From the NCBI GenBank assembly GCA_022844585.1, contig JALHLM010000005.1:1-32880 (forward strand): a DNA stretch of 32,880 bases. Reading direction: 5' to 3'. Origin of the DNA: Pirellulales bacterium (GTDB taxonomy: Bacteria > Planctomycetota > Planctomycetia > Pirellulales > JALHLM01). Positions within the stretch are counted from its first letter, which is position 1; each line of letters starts with the position of its first letter. A program made the position numbers and the translations under genes. The notes beneath the pieces were generated by a model. The model was not told the origin of the DNA, made no database searches, and worked only from the letters and a program-made list of their open reading frames with translations. Positions 10,843 to 32,880 of the stretch are shown here, piece by piece.

Positions 10843-12891
10843 TTACACGCCGTCGGCCCGGATCGCCGCCCGGAAATCCTGCATGGCGACGCCGAAGTCG
10901 AAGTAGCATCGCCACTGAATGCCGAGCGTGTTGAAGTCGGTTTCGCCCGACTCGATCGTGGGGGTCGTGACGCCGTTCAGGTACGCGATTTCGAGCGCCG
11001 CCACATCCGCCGGATTGGCGAACAAATACCAAGCGATCGTGCTGGAGCCCGCCAGCGCTTGAGCGTTCAGATATGGCGACGCCACTGGACGGAAACGTCC
11101 CGCGTGCGGGTTGCTTGCCGGTTTCGGCTTATCGGTCGTGGTCGATTCGTTGACGACTCGTTCGCTGAAGAGCTGCTCGGCCACGACCTTGAGGCCGGTC
11201 GGCACGAGCATCAGCGCCGGTTCCAAGGCCACCGGTTCGCCTTGCTCGTCGACCTGGTCCATAAACTTTTGTTCGGCGAGCGTGATGCCCGATACCGAAA
11301 GCGCAGATGTCGAGCCGGTAAGCAAGTTCTTGTTGCCGACCGAGAAGAAGCTCGTCGGGTTCGAAAGCAACAGCGTGAAGACAGCCTTCTCGACGGCGAT
11401 CGCACTCTTGCGCCCGAGGAAGCGGCTCGTGTCGACCAGCGCTTCGAGATCATCGTTATGCAGCTGCTGGCGATTCAGGGCGACCATCCCGCCGTAGGTT
11501 GCGAGCTGGTTCTGGTAACCCTGCTCGCCGAGCGTGAGGTGCTTGAGCTCGCCGTCGGGACCGACCTGTTCCATGCTGCCGGCCATCGTCATCCGATAGC
11601 GGGTGTGGACTTTGAAGTCGGTGTGATTCGCCGTGCGGCAGAAATTCTGGCTCACTCGCGGAACCGCCAGGTAAGCATCCAGCAATGACTTGTTGGCTAC
11701 GTTCCCCAAGATGCCAGGGAGCGAGATCGTGGAGAAACCGCCAGACGCCCGCAGTTGGCGATCCGCCTCGAACGCTGCTTGGATCACTTCGTCATCGATC
11801 TTACCCGGTCGGATCGAACGACCCGCCGCGCGAATGTATTCGTAGAACAAGGTGCCGATCGAGGCTTTTCGCAGCTTGGCCGCATCCATCGCCTCGAGCG
11901 TCTTCTGGTCGTAGCTTTTTTCGATCAGCTCGGCGCTGACGCCGGCGCTCCGGCAAAGCGCCGCTTCGAGCGGTTTTCCAAGGAGCGGCGAGCTATCGCC
12001 ACCATGAATCGCGGGGGCCGCCGGGCGCGAAGCCCGCAGCACTTCGAGTTCCGTGCGTGTGGCGTCCCAGCCTTCTTCGACGGCCTGAGCGGCGATGCCG
12101 GGATGTCGCGTGGCGATCTCGCGGACCTTGGATTGACGCTTGAGCTCCGCAGCGGCGCTCGCCCGAAGTTCCGTTACGTGATCGGCGGTGTCGACCACGG
12201 CCGTACCGTTCGCGTTGGCGGCGACAGGTTTCTCTTGCCCGGCGTCGAACATCGCCCGCAGACTCACCTGCTGGCTGTCATTGAGCTCGGCCAGTTGGAA
12301 CCCCTTGGCGTCGAGCCATTTTTCAAAGTCCATCGAATCTGCCTCCAAAGTCGGTTGCGCTTGGGCGGCAACACGTGCGCTGGTTTGATCGTCCGCCCCA
12401 AGCGTGACGAAACTGACTTCTTGCAAGGTCGCCTTGCGGGCGATGTAGACCGGTCCGTGGACCTCGCCGCCATTGGCCTGCGCCGTCTTGCCCGCCGGCA
12501 CGAAGACCGCCTTCTCGACGAGCGCTCCGACCGACGCCTGCCACGGAAAACCGTTGATTGAACTGGCCACGACCTCTTGCGCGGCGGAGCCGGCACCCGA
12601 GATCAAGCCGTCGACCAAGAGTGAATTCCCCTCGACGCGGATCTGTTCGGCATGACCGACGCGTTGCCGCGTGTCGTGATCCAGCAAGATCGGCTTCGCA
12701 CCGCGCAAGCGACGCAACCCGGCGAGGTCGACCACGACCGGCGCATCCCAGCCGGCAACTAGCATCGCCGCGCCGGTGTAAGCGGTCATGTTGAAACGGC
12801 GCAGGGCCTGCTCGCCATCGCCAGTTGCTTCCAACAGGCGAACCGCGTCCGCAGCACAGGTCATGTGAATTGCGCCGGGCATCCGTTTCAT
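10843..12891 (-). CDS. Prohead protease-major capsid protein fusion
   Basis: 682 aa. N-terminal prohead-protease-like segment (ILLDHDTRQRVGHAEQIRVEGNSLLVDGLIS..WQASVGALVEKAVFV..ATLQEVSFVTLGAD) is continuous with an HK97-fold-like capsid region (NFCRTANHTDFKVHTRYRMTMAGSMEQVGPDGELKH..). Confidence 0.8.
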   Translation of the reverse strand: MKRMPGAIHMTCAADAVRLLEATGDGEQALRRFNMTAYTGAAMLVAGWDAPVVVDLAGLRRLRGAKPILLDHDTRQRVGHAEQIRVEGNSLLVDGLISGAGSAAQEVVASSINGFPWQASVGALVEKAVFVPAGKTAQANGGEVHGPVYIARKATLQEVSFVTLGADDQTSARVAAQAQPTLEADSMDFEKWLDAKGFQLAELNDSQQVSLRAMFDAGQEKPVAANANGTAVVDTADHVTELRASAAAELKRQSKVREIATRHPGIAAQAVEEGWDATRTELEVLRASRPAAPAIHGGDSSPLLGKPLEAALCRSAGVSAELIEKSYDQKTLEAMDAAKLRKASIGTLFYEYIRAAGRSIRPGKIDDEVIQAAFEADRQLRASGGFSTISLPGILGNVANKSLLDAYLAVPRVSQNFCRTANHTDFKVHTRYRMTMAGSMEQVGPDGELKHLTLGEQGYQNQLATYGGMVALNRQQLHNDDLEALVDTSRFLGRKSAIAVEKAVFTLLLSNPTSFFSVGNKNLLTGSTSALSVSGITLAEQKFMDQVDEQGEPVALEPALMLVPTGLKVVAEQLFSERVVNESTTTDKPKPASNPHAGRFRPVASPYLNAQALAGSSTIAWYLFANPADVAALEIAYLNGVTTPTIESGETDFNTLGIQWRCYFDFGVAMQDFRAAIRADGV

Positions 12892-14343: not shown

Positions 14344-14541
14344 TTAGGCGGTTCCCGAGGGGATGAACTTGTTGAGCCGGAGGCCACGTGATGGCTTCTT
14401 CGCGGCGTCTTTCGAGGCCAGGTAGCGATCCGCCGCGATCTGGTCGGCGAGACTGTGCTGCTCAACCGAGCCAGCGTCGCCCGACACTTTGGCCGGACCA
14501 GCAGCGTTCTCGCGAATCTTGGTTTCGAGTTCGTCAGGCAT
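14344..14541 (-). CDS. Small phage protein between terminase and portal
   Basis: 65 aa from ATG 14541 (MPDELETKIRENAAGPAKVSGD...), abutting the portal gene. Confidence 0.5.
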   Translation of the reverse strand: MPDELETKIRENAAGPAKVSGDAGSVEQHSLADQIAADRYLASKDAAKKPSRGLRLNKFIPSGTA

Positions 14542-14565
14542 GGTATTGCCCCCAAGACAACTAGC

Positions 14566-14577
14566 TTGACGAGTCAA
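14566..14577. promoter_or_regulatory. Palindrome TTGAC-GA-GTCAA, possible operator
   Basis: Perfect 5-bp arms, about 25 nt upstream of ATG 14541 and just past the terminator. Confidence 0.35.
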
Positions 14578-14578
14578 C

Positions 14579-14618
14579 GAAAAAAGGCCACGCAGGGATG
14601 CGGCCCCGCATGGCCTTT
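14579..14618 (-). terminator. Rho-independent terminator
   Basis: Stem AAAGGCCA (14583-14590)/TGGCCTTT (14611-14618) with inner TGCGG..CCGCA; on the minus strand it is followed by a T run (GGCCTTTTTTCG). Confidence 0.8.
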
Positions 14619-14760: not shown

Positions 14761-15939
14761 TCAGTGACCTTCGATCGCCGAAATCTCGTCAGGCGACAAT
14801 TGCCATTTTTGGCATAATGTCAGAGCGCCTTGAATCTCTTGCGCGACGTGTGGCAGTCGGAGCTCCGGAGAGGAAATCGCCTCTTCGCTGTTCACGAATC
14901 GCCAATCGTTCGGCGTGCCAAGTTGTTGTTCCACTTGTTCATTTGTCACTTCAATGCCTCGGACAAATGGAACGTGGTCGGGAGATGTCGGATCGAAAAT
15001 ATACGAAAAGTCCATAGCCCATGGCCGGGACGCAAACAATGGAGCATCGGGAGACTTGAAAAACTCGGCGCGGACCGCGTGGTCAGTGTGCAAATGGCCC
15101 GCATAGGAGCCGCAGTCTTTACCCTTCAGCTTTTCGAGGTCAGGTAGCGGCACGTCTTCGTTCCATTCATACTGCTTAAATGGTCCATTGATGTCGACGT
15201 CCATGAGCCAGGTTGCACGACCATCTTTTGTGACGGCGGCCGTGTCAATGGTCAGCATAGCCGTGCGCAGTGCCCACTCAATCCGTGTGCTTCTTTTTTC
15301 GTACCACTCTTGAGTCATGATCATGTGACCCAAACTGTTTGCGGTGAACGCGATTCCGCCGGGAATCCTATGGTCATGCCACCATCTTCCTTCTGCTGCA
15401 CTGGCAAAGTAATCGACCGAAAACGTAAACTGCCATGTTTTCTGGGTGCCTGGATTCAAGAGATACAAAGATTCGCTGACGATGTCGTTTCCCTCGCTGT
15501 CCATCGCGTTGGACCAGCCAGCAAGTTGCTGCAATCGAAGCGAGAACTGGCGTAGCGATTCGTCCGGTGCCGCAAACGCTAACCGTTGCGACGCAACGAC
15601 GAGCATGAATCCATGAAGGGGTCGACCACGAAACGCGCGGCGCTTCCACAGAAGTCTTGACTCAAGAATCTTCTGAGAGACATGTTCATCTGATTCGAGC
15701 AAGTCTCGATCAGTCAAAAAACAGTACTGCAGTTGTCCCTTCGCAGCGGCAATGCGCCCAAAGAGGCATGGCTGCTCTCGCTGCAACCAGGACTTAAGCG
15801 ACTCCTCGCGTTCCGTATCATAGGCGAATGGATGGAACAATACTCTGTTAACAATCTGCGATTCCTCCGAAAATGGATTCGAATCTCGCCAACGGTCCAC
15901 GGTTAGACCGTCATACAATGCTTTTAGAGTTGTTGTCAT
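14761..15939 (-). CDS. Uncharacterised protein, third gene of the trypsin cassette
   Basis: 392 aa ORF; ATGA overlap with the preceding small gene; no family recognised. Confidence 0.75.
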   Translation of the reverse strand: MTTTLKALYDGLTVDRWRDSNPFSEESQIVNRVLFHPFAYDTEREESLKSWLQREQPCLFGRIAAAKGQLQYCFLTDRDLLESDEHVSQKILESRLLWKRRAFRGRPLHGFMLVVASQRLAFAAPDESLRQFSLRLQQLAGWSNAMDSEGNDIVSESLYLLNPGTQKTWQFTFSVDYFASAAEGRWWHDHRIPGGIAFTANSLGHMIMTQEWYEKRSTRIEWALRTAMLTIDTAAVTKDGRATWLMDVDINGPFKQYEWNEDVPLPDLEKLKGKDCGSYAGHLHTDHAVRAEFFKSPDAPLFASRPWAMDFSYIFDPTSPDHVPFVRGIEVTNEQVEQQLGTPNDWRFVNSEEAISSPELRLPHVAQEIQGALTLCQKWQLSPDEISAIEGH

Positions 15940-16151
15940 GAGCCGATTGGACTTAAAGAACCGAACTTCTTGATTGTCACCGGAAAACCGTGCCAGCCAT
16001 CACGCAAGTATTCCAGATCTGGCGGCCGGTTTGAAGACAGATAAAGCACGATCGCCTCCTGTCCATCTTTAAGGCCGATTCCGATCGAAACCAGCCATGA
16101 TGGACGGCCAATATGCTCTCGAAGCTCTGTTGCAGCTTCTTGAATGCTCAT
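15936..16151 (-). CDS. Small protein resembling the N-terminal domain of the adjacent trypsin-like protease
   Basis: 71 aa; WLVSIGIGLKDGQEAIVLYLSSN...GFPVTIKKFG aligns by eye with YVGMEVQAVGFEHGKENPGVVIYATKG...GVSVTIRKIGG of the protease. Starts by TGATG overlap with the protease stop. Confidence 0.8.
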   Translation of the reverse strand: MSIQEAATELREHIGRPSWLVSIGIGLKDGQEAIVLYLSSNRPPDLEYLRDGWHGFPVTIKKFGSLSPIGS

Positions 16152-17239
16152 CAGATGCCGTGTTGCGCAACGAGTGAAATACCGCCAAAAAGCGAAAGGA
16201 CGTGAGAGATGGGCATCATCAAACCGTAGTCGCCTGTCTTGTTGGATGAGAATAGCACACCAACGGCGTACTTCGCATCTTCGCTGACCACGAGTGACCC
16301 TGAATCACCGGGAAGGGCAAAATGCGGCCCATCACCCATCACGTACCACATGTTTTTGAACCAAACGGTTCCCTTAAAATACTTTGTTTGACAGGGGATC
16401 GGAGTGGGCTCGTCGATGAGGGCTTCCACCGTACCGAAAGACTTTCCAGTCGTACGACCGGTTTTCATGACTTTCAGACCAGCCGATGGGCTCAGTATGG
16501 CGGAGGGCGTATCGTAGCCTTGATCGTCGCCCTGCCACGAACTCACCTTTGAAGGATCTGGGATCAATCCAATCGCGACGTCTTCCACACATGGATGCAC
16601 GAGTTCTGGGTCTCCGCTGCGCAGCGGTACGATTTCAGAATGTCGTGCAATTTCGCCAGGGGAGCGGAGTTGCGGTGCGGCGTCGACATTTGCTGGGGCA
16701 AGGATAGGCATGTTTACCGGCGTATGATTGCACGCCCCGAAAACATGGTTGTTGGACAGTGCAAAGAGTTGGCCATTACGAGAGACGATTGCTCCGAAGG
16801 TTCCGGCATACTCCGCACCTGCAGGGGCACACGAGCTCCCACAGGCAATGCGCTTCATCCGTTCGAACACATGTGGTTGTCCAGTATTCCCGTGAGCTAG
16901 CTCCGGCTTAATGTTCACGCCGCCGATTTTTCGAATTGTTACACTCACTCCATTGACTTCGACGGGCAACTTGCGAAAGTCTCGCGCCGAACCTTTTGTG
17001 GCGTAGATCACAACGCCGGGGTTTTCCTTTCCATGTTCAAACCCGACTGCCTGCACCTCCATACCGACGTAGGCTTCACTAGCATCCCACAGAGGCTGAG
17101 CATTCTGGATTGCCGCAAGTTGCATGCCGACTCCTTTTGTACCGATCGGCGTACCGACTGCCGAATATCGACCTTCTTCGCGAAATCTTTGAGCCAAAAT
17201 CGCTGCCGCCTTTTTTGCCTTTAGAACTGCACTGCCCAC
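16151..17239 (-). CDS. Trypsin-like (chymotrypsin-fold) serine protease with N-terminal domain
   Basis: Triad candidates LSNNHVFG (His), EDVAIG (Asp), LPGDSGSLVV (Ser) in the correct order and spacing. Confidence 0.85.
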   Translation of the reverse strand: MGSAVLKAKKAAAILAQRFREEGRYSAVGTPIGTKGVGMQLAAIQNAQPLWDASEAYVGMEVQAVGFEHGKENPGVVIYATKGSARDFRKLPVEVNGVSVTIRKIGGVNIKPELAHGNTGQPHVFERMKRIACGSSCAPAGAEYAGTFGAIVSRNGQLFALSNNHVFGACNHTPVNMPILAPANVDAAPQLRSPGEIARHSEIVPLRSGDPELVHPCVEDVAIGLIPDPSKVSSWQGDDQGYDTPSAILSPSAGLKVMKTGRTTGKSFGTVEALIDEPTPIPCQTKYFKGTVWFKNMWYVMGDGPHFALPGDSGSLVVSEDAKYAVGVLFSSNKTGDYGLMMPISHVLSLFGGISLVAQHGI

Positions 17240-17254
17240 GCGACGCCCCCGTTT

Positions 17255-17515
17255 CTATGTTTTTGGTGGTTGCCCACCTTCAAACTTAACTGGTCGTGCT
17301 TCACTCTGCCATATGGGGGCCTTCCATCCCCCGATTGGGTGCTCCCAGGTCGAAAGCCGCCTGCGACACTTCAGGCATTCTCGCCGGCGCATGATCACGC
17401 CAGCCGCTGCAGCGCGCGTGTATACTACTCTGGTCCGATTAGACCCACATTGGGGACAAATCAGCCCCTTTGAATCATTGGAATTGACGTCAAATTGTTT
17501 CGACTTCATGGTCAT
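17255..17515 (-). CDS. Zinc-ribbon protein
   Basis: CPQCGSNRTRVVYTR...RRRECLKCRRRLSTWE, an NrdR/Ogr-like CxxC pair; ATGA overlap with the terminase stop. Confidence 0.7.
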   Translation of the reverse strand: MTMKSKQFDVNSNDSKGLICPQCGSNRTRVVYTRAAAAGVIMRRRECLKCRRRLSTWEHPIGGWKAPIWQSEARPVKFEGGQPPKT

Positions 17516-21404: not shown

Positions 21405-22718
21405 TCACGTCGCCACCTCGGCGAGCGCCACGCGTTCGGCCTTCTTGCCGGTGAATTTTTCGAAGCGCTGCACGATGACGTCACAATAGAGCGCGTCGAG
21501 TTCCATCAGGTACGCCCGTCGGCCCGTCTGCTCGGCGGCGATCAACGTTGATCCACTGCCGCCAAATAGGTCCAACACATTCTCGCCCGGGCGCGACGAG
21601 TATTGCATCGCCCGCACTGCCAGCTCGACCGGTTTCTCGGTGAGATGCACCATCGACTGTGGGTTGACCTTCTTGATGCTCCAAACGTCGACGGCGTTGT
21701 TCGGCCCGAGGTAGAGATGGGCAGCGCCCTCTCGCCAACCGTAGAAGCACCACTCATGGTTGCCCATGAAATCCTTGCGGGTCAGAACTGGATGCTCCTT
21801 CACCCAGATGATAGCTTGTGAGAAGTAGAGCTCGCAGGCCTTCAGTACCGGCGGATAGTTCGCGCAGTTGGCATAACCGCCCCAGATGTAGAACCCTCTT
21901 CCCGGCGCGAGCACTCGGGCCATATTGCCAAACCAGGCAGAGAGCAGTTCGTCGAACGCAACATCGCTCACGAAGTCGTTTGCCAACGGTCGATCTTTGG
22001 CACGCAGCTTCTTCTGTGTCGGCTTGGACTTCTCCGGGTGGCGCGCCAGGTCGAGCGATTGATGGTGCTTGGGGCCGGCAAAGGAACTCAGGCCGGCGGC
22101 GATGGCGTTGTTCGAACGCGGCTCGACTTTGACGTTATACGGCGGGTCGCTATTCACGAGGTGGATCACAGCGCCGTCGAGCAACCGATCGACGTCATCC
22201 GGCTTGCTCGAATCGCCGCAGAGCAACCGGTGCTCCCCGAGAATCCACAAGTCGGCAGGCCGCGTGTTCGCTTGGTCCGGCGGCGCTGGCACATCGTCCG
22301 GATCGCACAGCCCGTCCTTCGCGGACGGATTGAGCAGCTTCAGGAGCTCGTCTTCGTAGAACCCCAGCAAACCGAGGTCGTAGTTCAGTGCCTGCAGCTC
22401 GCCCAACTCAATCGGCAGCAGGTCGTAGTTCCACTCGGCCAGCTCGGCCGTTTTGTTGTCGGCGATCCGGTACGCCTTGATCTGCTCGGGCGTCAGGTCT
22501 TTGGCGACATGGACCGGCACCTTTTCCAGGCCCAGGTGCTGGGCTGCCTTCCACCGCGTGTGCCCACAGATGATGACGCCCTCGGCGTCGACCACGATCG
22601 GCTGCCGGAAGCCAAACTCCCGGATGCTCGCCGCCACGGCAACGACAGCGTCGTCGTTGAGGCGAGGATTGCCGGCATAGGGCGTGATCTTGACAATCCG
22701 CCAGAGAGAGACTTGCAT
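21405..22718 (-). CDS. ParB-like nuclease domain-DNA methyltransferase fusion
   Basis: ParB N-terminus (IREFGFRQPIVVDAEGVIICGHTRWKAAQHLGLEKVPVHVA), DPPY motif (NSDPPYNVKVE), SAM-binding DLFGGSGSTLIAAEQTGRRAYLMELD. Confidence 0.92.
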   Translation of the reverse strand: MQVSLWRIVKITPYAGNPRLNDDAVVAVAASIREFGFRQPIVVDAEGVIICGHTRWKAAQHLGLEKVPVHVAKDLTPEQIKAYRIADNKTAELAEWNYDLLPIELGELQALNYDLGLLGFYEDELLKLLNPSAKDGLCDPDDVPAPPDQANTRPADLWILGEHRLLCGDSSKPDDVDRLLDGAVIHLVNSDPPYNVKVEPRSNNAIAAGLSSFAGPKHHQSLDLARHPEKSKPTQKKLRAKDRPLANDFVSDVAFDELLSAWFGNMARVLAPGRGFYIWGGYANCANYPPVLKACELYFSQAIIWVKEHPVLTRKDFMGNHEWCFYGWREGAAHLYLGPNNAVDVWSIKKVNPQSMVHLTEKPVELAVRAMQYSSRPGENVLDLFGGSGSTLIAAEQTGRRAYLMELDALYCDVIVQRFEKFTGKKAERVALAEVAT

Positions 22719-29163: not shown

Positions 29164-31431
29164 CTAGTTTTTTTCGCGCTCCCGAGAACGAACTTCCAGA
29201 TTAGACACTGTCCATCCGAGTCTGTCCATTTCACGGACAAGTTCCGTATAGACTTGGGATTCTTGGTCGTGGCTCATGATTGTAACGACCAGGAATGCCG
29301 GTAAAGGCTCCTCCTCAAAACACTCGGCGCGGTTGGTCATTTTCAAGTGCAATCGCCAATCACGACCGGCCGGCGTCTTCTTGAATCGTCGGTAGTAGGT
29401 TTTCATTGGTGCCCATTGAACGCCAAAATCCGACAGCGCTGGCGGATATCGTTTGCATAAGTCTTTTGGCGACGGGTGGACTTCTCGGCCTCCGTAAACT
29501 TCCCCTTTCTCCTCGTCAAATTCCAAGAATCCAAGCGACGCGTCGATGTTTCGTCGACAGTATTCGACTCCAAATGCACGATCCAATGGCGAGTCGTAGA
29601 TCAGGGTCATAAAGACGTCACATTTCAGCATGCCAGCGACGTTCAGACACGGTGGCATTGCAAATGGATGTTTATAGAATCGCAGCCTCGTTTGAACAGG
29701 AGCCTGGAAGATTACTGTCGCACGAGACTGTTTGCAGTGCAGAATTTCGCCCGCATCAGGCGGCCGACCGTAGCCCGTATACTCAATGACGTCTGGCACA
29801 GGAGGACCATTTTCGACAAATGCCGAATGCACAACTAGCGCTTTGACCAGCAATGGATTTGAAGCGCTTCCGTCAGTTCTCAACTCCGACTCGACGGTGC
29901 CTGCAATCGCTGAAATCAGGGGTGTTGCGTAACTAACTCCAACGTGTTCAATGAGTTGTCGGTTCAAGCCGAGGGAGACTACACCCGTCTGAAAATAGTT
30001 GCCCTGGCTATCGCAGTTCCCTGCGTAGTGACTAACCTCGGGCTTTGGAATACCGCCAAGTCCTGGGCCTCGCAGGGAGAAAGGACTGACCTGCTCTCGC
30101 CGCACGCACGTGCTATCGTTGTCAGAATGTGCGAGCCCGCCTACCGTCAGTCCCCTAAGTCCATCGCCCGGAGGGGCTAATCTATCTTGTCCAGAAAAGG
30201 AAGAATCGACCGGCCATCCTCGATATGGCGTCGCGCTCATATTCCCAGCAGCAACCACAAAGAGCACTCCGAATTGCTTCTGCAAGTCGTCAATCGCCGC
30301 ACCGAATTCGGACATTGAATTGGAATTACATGCTACGCCCGACGACGCAAGTGACAGATTCCACACTCCAACCTCGGGAAACAGCTTCAGGGATTCCTCG
30401 AACAAATCCAGCAACTGCGATTCCTCAGCCTCGCCAGAATGGTCGAAAACGACAACGTCAACAACCTTGCAGGACGTGGAAGGAAAGCGGGGATTTCCGT
30501 GGTTTAAGTGCCGGCCATTTGCAATGAGCCCGGCGACGAATGTTCCGTGGGAGTTATCCTGAAGTTCTTGCGGATGCCAATCCTTTCGCGCGACAATCCA
30601 CTGTTGCAATGCCTCATTGTCAGGATCAGTGCCGGAATCAAACATTCCGATCAGCGGATAATTGCTGTCACGATCTGGGGATGGAAAGCAATCATCAGTC
30701 ATCGGCCCCAGAACGCGTGCAGCAGTACGCACCAGCCGAAAACGAGGCATTGCACACACGTTTTGTGTGCCTGGAAAGCTAGCCAGCCGCGCCGCAACTT
30801 GTGGGTTCTGAGCCTCGCAGCGATAAATGCGAACTCCTCGCCCATAGTTGACTTGCTTCAATCCTGTTGCTCCATTTTCTTGCGCAAATCTCTCAAATTC
30901 GCGTTCGAGCAAGCGATCGTACGCATTGTTTCTGTGGCGAAACAGCTTTACGCGGAGCGATTGCCGTTTGCTCGCTTGCTCAGTCAATTCACGTTCTAAC
31001 GCATCGCTGGCGGTATAAGGTTCAATCTCTTGCAGAGTGGAAAGATGAGACACTGCATCCTTTGACGCGGCTGTCATGATTCGCTGTTCTAGCTTTGTGA
31101 GACCGCTGGCAGTTGCGCTCACAAACAAGGTTCCTGCTTCGGACACACCGATGATCGGGCATGTGTCGTCGCGAAGAATCTCATCTGGACGATACGACTT
31201 CTTGCGAGCCTCTTCCTTCAACACGACCTTCGCCACTGCTGGCATTCCATTTTGCAGGGCCTGCTCAAACGTCTTGGCAACGTTCTTAACTTGCGCGGCG
31301 TAGTTGCGCCTGTAATTCGCGTCAACTGTACAGAGCGGATCGAAACCTCCACCTTTCTCGTTTGGCTCTTTGAAGTCGATGTCCTTAGTGGGCAGCACAA
31401 CTTTAATCGGGAGCAGATCTTTGTCAGCCAT
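29164..31431 (-). CDS. S8 (subtilisin-like) serine peptidase paired with AAA ATPase
   Basis: Triad motifs LIGMFDSGTD (Asp), DNSHGTFVAGLIA (His), HVGVSYATPLISAIAG (Ser). ATG overlaps the AAA stop (ATGGCTGA). Confidence 0.9.
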   Translation of the reverse strand: MADKDLLPIKVVLPTKDIDFKEPNEKGGGFDPLCTVDANYRRNYAAQVKNVAKTFEQALQNGMPAVAKVVLKEEARKKSYRPDEILRDDTCPIIGVSEAGTLFVSATASGLTKLEQRIMTAASKDAVSHLSTLQEIEPYTASDALERELTEQASKRQSLRVKLFRHRNNAYDRLLEREFERFAQENGATGLKQVNYGRGVRIYRCEAQNPQVAARLASFPGTQNVCAMPRFRLVRTAARVLGPMTDDCFPSPDRDSNYPLIGMFDSGTDPDNEALQQWIVARKDWHPQELQDNSHGTFVAGLIANGRHLNHGNPRFPSTSCKVVDVVVFDHSGEAEESQLLDLFEESLKLFPEVGVWNLSLASSGVACNSNSMSEFGAAIDDLQKQFGVLFVVAAGNMSATPYRGWPVDSSFSGQDRLAPPGDGLRGLTVGGLAHSDNDSTCVRREQVSPFSLRGPGLGGIPKPEVSHYAGNCDSQGNYFQTGVVSLGLNRQLIEHVGVSYATPLISAIAGTVESELRTDGSASNPLLVKALVVHSAFVENGPPVPDVIEYTGYGRPPDAGEILHCKQSRATVIFQAPVQTRLRFYKHPFAMPPCLNVAGMLKCDVFMTLIYDSPLDRAFGVEYCRRNIDASLGFLEFDEEKGEVYGGREVHPSPKDLCKRYPPALSDFGVQWAPMKTYYRRFKKTPAGRDWRLHLKMTNRAECFEEEPLPAFLVVTIMSHDQESQVYTELVREMDRLGWTVSNLEVRSREREKN

Positions 31432-32539
31432 GTGAATGCTCCTTATTCAGGATTTTGTGAATCGCGGGCTGCGACAAGCCGACCAGTTTGCCCAAGGCCG
31501 CTTCCGTGAACAGCCGCTCATCTAGCGCTCTCAGCTGGCGGATCATACTGTCGCGATCAACGCTGTCGCGACCGGTCTCCCTGAGCAATGCCGAAGCAAT
31601 TCCGGCTGCGTCGGCGACATTAGACCGTTGAAGCACTGCTGCGCGAATCGCGTCGTCCGCCACAAGCTTGATTTGCGCGCCCGACAGACCATCACTTAAC
31701 CGGGAAAAAACTTCATCCCATCCCGAAGGTGCAAATCTGCTCAGAAACTTTTGCATCAATTGAGTGCGACATTCAGCGTTGGGCGTATCCAATCTCAGTC
31801 GGCATGCGAATCTGCGCCAAATTGCAGAATCAAGGAGATGTTCGTGGTTCGTGGCCGCGAGCAACACATGGTCTTTGTCAAGTGCGTCGATGTTCTGTAA
31901 TAAACTAATCACCACGCGCTTAAGTTCGCCAAGCTCTCGACCGTCGTCACGCTTCTTTGCAATTGCGTCAAATTCGTCGAGAAACAAAACACAAGGTTCT
32001 GCCATCGCGAATTCGAACAGTCGCCGAACATTCTTGGATGTGCTTCCCAAATAGGAAGAAATCAGGCCGTCACTTCGCGCTGTAACGAGTGGAAGTCCAA
32101 GCTCAGCTGCGATAAAGCGAGCGGTCAATGTCTTTCCATTGCCTGGCGGACCATAGAGAAGCATTGTCGGGGAAATGCCAACGCCGCTTTCTGTCAGCCG
32201 ATCTGATTCGCGAATGTACACAACGAATTGTCGAATTGCATTGAGATTCGACTCTGAAAGAATCAAGTCGACGGAACCCGATTGAACGAATTCACGGTCG
32301 GCGATGCTAAGCGCTGACTCAGCGTCCACGGGGATCGCTCCCCCCTGCCCCCTCGCAATAGACGCCTTCCTAGCCGGACGCTTCTCAACGATTCGTTGCA
32401 GGCGATCAGCTTCCTTGACAGCACCAGAGGTTCGTAGATCGTCAATGAACTGTCGAAGATATGCGGCAGCTGACTCGGCATTGCCGACAATAGCCGCCTC
32501 GGCCATCTTGGACACAAAAAAAAGGTCTTTTCCGTCCAC
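31424..32539 (-). CDS. AAA+ ATPase with C-terminal HTH-like segment
   Basis: Walker A LLYGPPGNGKTLTA, Walker B CVLFLDEFDAIAKK, sensor LLAATNHEHLL, Arg finger AIWRRFACRLRL; C-terminal LFTEAALGKLVGLSQPAIHKILNKE. Start placed at GTG 32539 with SD AAGGGG; ATG 32506 is an alternative and the track start 32635 looks too long. Confidence 0.88.
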   Translation of the reverse strand: MDGKDLFFVSKMAEAAIVGNAESAAAYLRQFIDDLRTSGAVKEADRLQRIVEKRPARKASIARGQGGAIPVDAESALSIADREFVQSGSVDLILSESNLNAIRQFVVYIRESDRLTESGVGISPTMLLYGPPGNGKTLTARFIAAELGLPLVTARSDGLISSYLGSTSKNVRRLFEFAMAEPCVLFLDEFDAIAKKRDDGRELGELKRVVISLLQNIDALDKDHVLLAATNHEHLLDSAIWRRFACRLRLDTPNAECRTQLMQKFLSRFAPSGWDEVFSRLSDGLSGAQIKLVADDAIRAAVLQRSNVADAAGIASALLRETGRDSVDRDSMIRQLRALDERLFTEAALGKLVGLSQPAIHKILNKEHSHG

Positions 32540-32578
32540 AGACAGCCCCTTGCGGTTATTGAAAGCGGCACAATGGTA

Positions 32579-32607
32579 ATTATGTCGGCGATTATTAGTT
32601 ATTGCAA
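32579..32607 (-). promoter_or_regulatory. Putative promoter of the AAA-S8 operon
   Basis: Minus strand TTGCAA (32602-32607), 17-nt spacer, CATAAT (32579-32584), about 40 nt upstream of GTG 32539. Confidence 0.45.
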
Positions 32608-32880
32608 CATCAAAAATGGTTATTTTTTGGCGCAATCTGGGAATGTGCTTGGGTTTGCCGAGAAGTCCAGCAGTTCGCGAGCGATGGAAATGCTGGCGTT
32701 GGCGGCTAATTATCGGTGCTCAAGACGCGCGAGTTCGGCGGAGCATTCCTTCCGATACGTTGAGACCGCTAGTGCGACGTGGTGCGACAAAGCGGAGGGA
32801 TTCTGCAAAATCTTCAAGCGCAACGAAGTTCCGCGGCCGTGAACCCGATCTTCGGTTCTGTAAAGATCGAATCGCCCCGA

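What the first reader, a model, noticed from the sequence alone, without database searches (positions are those of the whole stretch)
14761..17239. Three-gene trypsin-like protease cassette inserted between terminase and portal
The three ORFs are translationally coupled (TGATG and ATGA overlaps): a trypsin-like protease with full triad, a 71-aa protein and a 392-aa protein of unknown family. They sit inside the otherwise canonical terminase-portal interval and look AT-richer than the flanking structural genes. A protease cassette here is not part of standard virion morphogenesis, because the capsid protease is encoded separately at 10843-12891. This suggests a moron or cargo module, possibly for phage-phage conflict, superinfection exclusion or host killing.
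Basis: partly seen in the sequence, partly recalled or inferred. Interest (0 to 1): 0.85.

Follow-up and report, generated by a model that had tools for sequence, protein, structure and literature searches.

The report
Protease-oxygenase defence cassette in phage
A virus of planctomycete bacteria carries, in a slot where its relatives keep various anti-virus genes, a three-gene cassette (a trypsin-like protease, a small copy of that protease's own regulatory domain, and a predicted heme oxygenase) that looks like an immune device in which a protease controls an unusual oxygenase effector.

Summary
In detail: three overlapping minus-strand genes at 14761-17239, AT-rich against the flanks, with an intact His165/Asp220/Ser313 triad. 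The site is an accessory hotspot. In 75 of 90 distinct related phage loci the terminase-portal gap is about 500 nt; others carry different cargo there, several recognised as defence (AbiE, PD-Lambda-2 beta protein, ImmA/IrrE genes). The window and at least seven cargo-bearing relatives share a strong terminator after the cargo.

The protease is NAL1-type. The 71-aa protein is a standalone copy of the protease's N-terminal domain, and such pairs are common next to cellular homologues, so it is probably the protease's regulator. The 392-aa protein is a distant relative of cysteine-thiolate heme N-hydroxylases (YqcI/YcgG; AglA fold; the Cys44-equivalent is kept). It belongs to a rare six-member clade; three members form operons with peptidases: trypsin-like here, caspase plus TIR, and caspase fused to a Hachiman-type helicase (its sister). 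This parallels published protease-gated nuclease pairs, with an oxygenase in place of the nuclease. Function is inferred, not shown; the trio itself was found nowhere else.

The parts
16151..17239 (-). NAL1-type trypsin-like serine protease, 362 aa; N-terminal regulatory-type domain (about residues 53-111), triad H165/D220/S313
   Evidence: phrog_25502 E 2e-46, phrog_20754 'protease' 6e-15; Nal1_C 3e-4, below cut-off; AF2 model hits NAL1 by Foldseek at 1e-12 over about 365 columns; triad invariant
15936..16151 (-). 71-aa standalone copy of the protease N-terminal domain; predicted regulator or inhibitor of the protease
   Evidence: BLASTP to the protease N-domain 3e-4; an HMM of other standalone copies, built without the window, hits both this protein (21.5 bits) and the window protease residues 53-111 (19.2 bits); same gene pair next to cellular proteases
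14761..15939 (-). 392-aa predicted cysteine-thiolate heme N-oxygenase (distant YqcI/YcgG/AglA relative); heme-ligand candidate Cys58, propionate-binding candidate Arg191
   Evidence: Foldseek of AF2 model: AglA entries 9ubs/9ub3/9ubb prob 1.00, E 9e-4; motif PC-L-FG equals AglA PC44-Y-FG; six-member clade 100/100
14583..14618 (-). intrinsic terminator closing the cassette; element shared with other cargo-bearing relatives
   Evidence: 15-bp stem followed by T6; near-identical element in L128, L059, L051, L045, L101, variants in L102 and L038; 1 of 75 loci with gap of at most 700 nt
17255..17515 (-). 86-aa NrdR-type zinc-ribbon protein: conserved upstream border of the hotspot, not cargo
   Evidence: PF22811 8e-13; homologue in most relatives with or without cargo
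14344..14577 (-). 77-aa small protein: conserved downstream border of the hotspot, not cargo
   Evidence: mostly 58-76% identical homologue in nearly all related loci

Best explanation
A moron-type immunity cassette sits in a defence-cargo hotspot between terminase and portal of a planctomycete prophage or phage. SHOWN by comparison: it is an insertion at a site that is empty in most relatives; the 71-aa protein is a free copy of the protease's N-terminal domain; the 392-aa family is paired with different peptidases in conflict-type operons. INFERRED: the protease is held inactive by its own N-domain and/or the free 71-aa copy. Infection by a competing phage releases the protease, which cleaves and activates the 392-aa protein, a cysteine-thiolate heme oxygenase kept as a proenzyme. 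The oxygenase then damages the infected cell, for example by hydroxylating arginine or another guanidine compound or by releasing a reactive nitrogen product, and so stops the competing phage. Stepwise confidence: accessory insertion 0.95; regulator role of the 71-aa protein 0.7; heme-thiolate oxygenase fold of the 392-aa protein 0.75; anti-phage role 0.65; proteolytic gating of the oxygenase 0.4.
For: Empty site: 75 of 90 distinct related loci have a terminase-portal gap of at most 700 nt (median over all 90: 517), the window 3169 nt. The same slot holds AbiEi/AbiEii, a PD-Lambda-2 beta protein, ImmA/IrrE-type proteins with XRE and MazG genes, and candidate PDC-S10/S14 proteins in relatives. 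Cargo shares a terminator. Standalone N-domain gene next to the protease in 10 of 10 first cellular loci and, as a test on loci not used to build the model, in the 6 closest of a new planctomycete set plus 2 others. The 392-aa model hits AglA first, then NOS oxygenase domains; profile comparison E 0.0038 over 166 collinear columns against 0.7 for two unrelated controls; Cys58, Phe178 and Arg191 are invariant and fall in the AglA Cys44/Phe152/Arg166 contexts. 392-aa relatives lie in operons with caspase + ThsB-type TIR + second TIR and with a caspase fused to a HamB-like helicase; the latter is the window's sister, 100/100, 44% identical. Protease-gated effectors, including a trypsin-to-caspase swap, are established for nucleases (PMC12799240).
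Against: No experiment. The trio was found only here. Only six members of the 392-aa clade are known; three have a clear same-strand peptidase partner, one has IetAS on the opposite strand, one has an unassigned convergent neighbour, and one sits on a short contig. Sequence membership in YqcI/YcgG fails (12.5 bits against cut-off 27). The oxygenase model is good only in its first 205 residues. Sister branches of the family pair with a DMT transporter or an aminoacyl-tRNA-synthetase-like gene, which suggests metabolic roles there. No cleavage site was identified. The window protease is very divergent. PADLOC recognises none of the three proteins.
Confidence: 0.42

Rival explanations
1. Toxin-antitoxin reading: the protease itself is the killing effector, the 71-aa protein is its inhibitor/antitoxin, and the 392-aa protein is a sensor or makes a small signal that releases the protease.
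For: Protease and free N-domain form a gene pair without the 392-aa gene in many genomes; in type IV Thoeris a TIR enzyme signals to a caspase-like protease that degrades cell proteins (PMC12847820), and one 392-aa relative sits in a caspase + TIR operon.
Against: The pair is also carried by ordinary chromosomes and large plasmids with no sign of toxin behaviour; the 392-aa protein pairs with unrelated peptidases, which fits a shared substrate better than a shared sensor, though not decisively.
Confidence: 0.25
2. Two unrelated cargo units lie side by side: the protease/71-aa pair, and a 392-aa enzyme that makes or detoxifies a guanidino-type small molecule for the host.
For: The deep branch of the 392-aa family is followed by a DMT transporter on E. 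coli plasmids and lies near one in alphaproteobacteria; one clade member has an arginase-family neighbour.
Against: TGATG and ATGA coupling ties the three genes into one translational unit; the window's sister and another clade member are in peptidase operons with immune genes.
Confidence: 0.15
3. Virion role: the protease works in particle maturation or is packaged in the virion.
For: Related proteases occur in other viral contigs, some among tail- or structure-like genes.
Against: The slot is empty in most close relatives, and 127 of the related loci match the window's head gene in the same search; the head protease is encoded separately; the phage-contig proteases mostly lack the free N-domain gene and largely form a clade that excludes the window.
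Confidence: 0.06
4. Counter-defence cargo: the protease or oxygenase inactivates host or rival-phage immune proteins rather than the cell.
For: A phage hotspot could carry anti-defence genes as easily as defence genes; proteases can cut immune proteins.
Against: The recognised cargo in the same slot of relatives is defence or toxin-antitoxin type; homologues of the 392-aa gene sit with immune genes on bacterial contigs and were not found in viral collections.
Confidence: 0.08

Closest known systems
Protease-gated nuclease pairs of Hachiman (HamMAB), AVAST and caspase-nuclease (Canu) systems (PMC12799240)
   Same: A trypsin-like or caspase peptidase encoded beside a separate effector gene; the peptidase class switches between relatives; in L180 the effector-like gene directly precedes a peptidase fused to a HamB-like helicase, the same layout as in the paper.
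   Different: The partner is a predicted heme oxygenase, not an MBL-fold nuclease; the window protease is a free NAL1-type enzyme with a small domain partner; proteolytic activation is untested.
YqcI/YcgG heme N-hydroxylases (AglA, GntA)
   Same: Best fold match; PC-x-FG heme-cysteine motif; equivalent Phe and Arg positions.
   Different: Below the Pfam cut-off; about 390 aa rather than 220-275 aa; found with peptidases and immune genes rather than in biosynthetic clusters.
NAL1-type trypsin-like proteases (rice NARROW LEAF 1)
   Same: Fold and catalytic triad; Foldseek alignment runs over the whole protein.
   Different: About 18% identity; bacterial/phage; accompanied by a separate copy of the N-terminal domain.
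Type IV Thoeris (TIR enzyme plus caspase-like protease)
   Same: A relative of the 392-aa protein lies in an operon with a caspase and ThsB-type TIR (L009).
   Different: The window cassette has neither TIR nor caspase.
Trypsin-co-occurring domains Trypco1/Trypco2 of conflict systems (PMC7159879)
   Same: A small protein encoded next to a trypsin-like protease in a conflict setting.
   Different: The 71-aa protein matches no Pfam family and is instead a copy of the protease's own N-domain.
P2/P4 phage defence hotspots (PMC9122126)
   Same: Fixed site in a phage genome, empty or filled with varied immune genes.
   Different: Different phage family; site lies between terminase large subunit and portal.

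Membership tests
Phage moron / accessory hotspot cargo | absent at the same site in close relatives | tested here: met
   75 of 90 distinct loci have a gap of at most 700 nt; no related locus has any of the three genes
Phage moron / accessory hotspot cargo | atypical composition | tested here: met
   GC 0.50-0.54, GC3 0.48-0.56, negative codon score against flanks
Phage moron / accessory hotspot cargo | own promoter and terminator | tested here: inconclusive
   Terminator present and shared with other cargo; no sigma-70-type promoter found by consensus scan
NAL1-type trypsin-like protease | trypsin fold with His-Asp-Ser triad | tested here: met
NAL1-type trypsin-like protease | Pfam Nal1_C above cut-off | tested here: not met
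   20.5 bits against 26.1; a relative of the family rather than a member by Pfam's rule
Pfam YqcI_YcgG (PF08892) | profile score above curated cut-off | tested here: not met
   12.5 bits against 27
Pfam YqcI_YcgG (PF08892) | AglA-type fold | tested here: met
   Foldseek prob 1.00, E 9e-4, though TM normalised by query is only 0.32; about half the model is weak
Pfam YqcI_YcgG (PF08892) | heme bound through a conserved cysteine | not testable with these tools
   Residue conserved (Cys58 in PC-L-FG; AglA Cys44 in PC-Y-FG); binding untested
Protease-gated effector pair (HamMAB/Canu type) | MBL-fold nuclease partner | tested here: not met
   Partner models as an AglA-like protein
Protease-gated effector pair (HamMAB/Canu type) | effector paired with trypsin-like or caspase peptidases in different operons | tested here: met
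   window trypsin-like; L009 caspase; L180 caspase-helicase fusion; three cases
Protease-gated effector pair (HamMAB/Canu type) | cleavage activates the effector | not testable with these tools
   needs biochemistry
Trypco1/Trypco2 | 71-aa protein matches the Trypco domains | tested here: not met
   no Pfam match at E up to 1
Known defence systems in PADLOC-DB (2023) | any cassette protein matches a model | tested here: not met
   no match at E up to 1

The most novel reading that the evidence does not exclude
The 392-aa clade is a new kind of immune effector: a heme-thiolate N-oxygenase stored as a proenzyme and switched on by a trypsin-like or caspase protease, so that infection triggers an oxidative or nitrogen-based chemical attack instead of nucleic-acid cleavage.
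Probability: 0.3. Interest if true: 0.9.

Novelty: new variant of a known kind. Interest (0 to 1): 0.72.

Why it matters
Protease-switched immune effectors in bacteria were shown recently for nucleases. This cassette suggests that the same logic may drive an oxygenase, a chemistry for which a literature search here found no link to anti-phage systems. It also gives a concrete hypothesis for a widespread bacterial gene pair, a NAL1-type protease beside a free copy of its N-terminal domain, and it marks a defence-cargo hotspot in a large, little-characterised phage family associated with planctomycetes.

Tried and rejected
Direct searches of IMG/VR, phage and plasmid collections with single proteins found no close relative of the trio. 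Searching IMG/VR with the 392-aa clade alignment found nothing. A capsid-maturation role was rejected because the head protease is separate and the slot is usually empty. A conserved three-gene cassette was rejected: pairs recur, the trio does not. Trypco identity for the 71-aa protein was rejected (no Pfam match). A link between the 392-aa clade and IetAS was considered, because both the window and L015 carry IetAS near the gene; in the other four genomes the IetS model matched only partially or weakly, so no general link is claimed. A papain/C39-like identity of the 515-aa neighbour in L014 was suspected from motifs but no Pfam or PADLOC family supported it. Profile comparison with one YqcI sequence was not convincing; with a YqcI alignment and controls it became suggestive. 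The viral structure library gave no match for the 392-aa model. The place of the window protease in its tree is uncertain because of a very long branch.

Full report
OBSERVATION. The three ORFs are present at the stated coordinates on the minus strand, overlapping as TGATG and ATGA. They are AT-rich and codon-atypical: GC 0.50-0.54 and GC3 0.48-0.56, against GC 0.61-0.64 and GC3 0.73-0.77 in terminase, portal and head genes. The order on the minus strand is terminase large subunit, 86-aa NrdR-type zinc ribbon, protease, 71 aa, 392 aa, terminator, 77 aa, portal, and then the fused head protease/major head gene. The contig belongs to a 5.8-Mb draft genome with 35 copies of PF07596, a family I know as typical of planctomycetes; the contig could still be mis-binned.

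THE SITE IS A CARGO HOTSPOT. Terminase and portal have more than 500 relatives each in IMG/VR; the best 80 for each were kept. Among 119 loci carrying both genes, 90 distinct, 75 have a terminase-portal gap of at most 700 nt (median over all 90: 517), which in the cases read holds only the small core genes; the window has 3169 nt. None of these loci contains any cassette gene. Fifteen distinct loci have larger gaps with different contents: AbiEi/AbiEii type IV toxin-antitoxin (L106, L038; AbiEi in L059), a PD-Lambda-2-type beta protein (L051), IrrE/ImmA-type genes, one with XRE and MazG genes (L128, L045), a calcineurin-like phosphoesterase (L107), a GIY-YIG-like protein (L081) and unassigned proteins. 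Downstream of the cargo, at 14583-14618 in the window, lies a strong hairpin plus T-run. Near-identical copies follow unrelated cargo in L128, L059, L051, L045 and L101, with variants in L102 and L038; by the strict pattern it is in 5 of 15 loci with gaps over 700 nt and 1 of 75 with smaller gaps (Fisher p 0.0004). So the cassette occupies an accessory slot whose recognised contents in relatives are largely of defence or toxin-antitoxin type.

PROTEASE AND 71-AA PARTNER. The protease matches phrog_25502 (2e-46) and phrog_20754 'protease'. Its AF2 model matches rice NAL1 at 1e-12 over the whole length, and alpha-lytic-type proteases over the catalytic domain. The triad His165/Asp220/Ser313 is invariant. 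The 71-aa protein resembles protease residues 65-109 (BLASTP 3e-4). An HMM made from standalone small proteins of other genomes, without window sequences, finds both the 71-aa protein and the protease N-domain, and the full small-protein HMM finds the N-termini of protease homologues down to 6e-9. In cellular homologues a small gene of this kind lies next to the protease in 10 of 10 first-look loci (two of these, L003 and L183, were not used to build the model) and, in a new planctomycete set, in the six closest loci plus L223 and L225. Viral-contig homologues mostly lack it. The simplest reading, by analogy with propeptide-like inhibitors, is that the free domain regulates the protease; this is inferred.

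392-AA PROTEIN. Pfam gives only a sub-threshold YqcI_YcgG match (12.5 bits, cut-off 27). The AF2 model (mean pLDDT 66.7, confident to about residue 205) matches AglA, a cysteine-thiolate heme N-hydroxylase of the YqcI/YcgG family, with probability 1.00 and E 9e-4; NOS oxygenase domains follow at 6e-3 and lower probability. AglA binds heme through Cys44, with Arg166 on a propionate and Phe152 in the substrate gate (PMC12866846). Cys44 lies in PC-Y-FG; Cys58 here lies in PC-L-FG and is invariant in all 15 family members aligned, as are Phe178 and Arg191. Profile comparison with a YqcI/GntA alignment gives E 0.0038 over 166 collinear columns (hhalign probability only 8.7), against about 0.7 for two unrelated pairs. 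I take it as a distant superfamily relative, not a Pfam-family member.

PARTNERS OF THE 392-AA CLADE. It is rare: 2 of 399 genomes sampled in the window's phylum including its own, 1 of 246 and 2 of 242 in the other two phyla sampled, each count including the genome used as centre. Six members form one clade (100/100). Three are in peptidase operons: the window; L009 with a caspase, a ThsB-type TIR and a second TIR; and L180, directly before a caspase fused to a HamB-like helicase. L180 is the window's sister (44% identity). L015 lies beside an arginase-family gene and, on the other strand, IetAS. L014 is beside an HNH gene and restriction-modification-type genes, and L016 is on a short contig. 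The sister branch of the family is instead next to a DMT transporter or a synthetase-like gene.

MECHANISM. A peptidase that switches between trypsin-like and caspase while the partner stays the same is what Tuck et al. found for protease-gated nucleases, where cleavage activates a proenzyme (PMC12799240). I propose the same logic with an oxygenase: the 71-aa domain restrains the protease, infection releases it, and the protease activates the oxygenase, which poisons the cell. Insertion, homology and partnership are shown by comparison; restraint, cleavage, heme chemistry and anti-phage effect are inferred. The strongest rival makes the protease itself the effector with the 71-aa protein as antitoxin.

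NOVELTY. No cassette protein matches PADLOC-DB, and paper searches found no connection between YcgG-type enzymes and anti-phage systems; the library is limited to open-licence papers. I rate it a new variant of a known kind (protease-paired immune effector) with a potentially new effector chemistry.

Noticed in passing
window 29164-32635 (-): A complete IetAS defence system: IetS subtilisin 29164-31431 (PADLOC 9e-215) and IetA AAA ATPase 31424-32635 (1e-122), so the same contig carries a second protease-based immune module.
   Followed up: partly
L001 1522-3442; L023 6935-8868; L244 6942-8868; L245 6513-8439: A deep branch of the oxygenase-like family is followed by a DMT transporter on small and large E. 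coli plasmids and in Edwardsiella; in L245 colicin genes lie just downstream. Possible small-molecule production or immunity pair.
   Followed up: partly
L045 2605-2672, L051 6185-6248, L059 4758-4821 (all -): Type II hammerhead ribozymes on the antisense strand upstream of terminase in cargo-bearing relatives; the window showed none at Rfam's threshold.
   Followed up: no
L038, L128, L059, L051, L045, L102, upstream of the 77-aa gene: The shared terminator is flanked by a further conserved inverted repeat of the type ACAACCA..CGGGCGA / TCGCCCG..TGGTTGT, absent or changed in the window; possibly a structured RNA or exchange site.
   Followed up: no
L003 231-5741 and L004 796-5597: In two Rhizobium plasmids the NAL1-type protease gene is next to a radical SAM gene and a HEXXH-type putative peptide-modification gene, which suggests a peptide-processing cluster.
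   Followed up: no
L181 2325-4255 (-): Two TIR-domain genes flank a caspase gene immediately before the 392-aa homologue: a candidate Thoeris-like operon with an extra effector.
   Followed up: partly
window 21405-22718 (-): ParB-N-terminal domain fused to an N6/N4 DNA methyltransferase upstream of the packaging genes.
   Followed up: no
L014 1539-3086 (-): A 515-aa protein convergent with the Verrucomicrobia 392-aa homologue has Cys and His motifs reminiscent of papain/C39-like peptidases but matches no family.
   Followed up: partly
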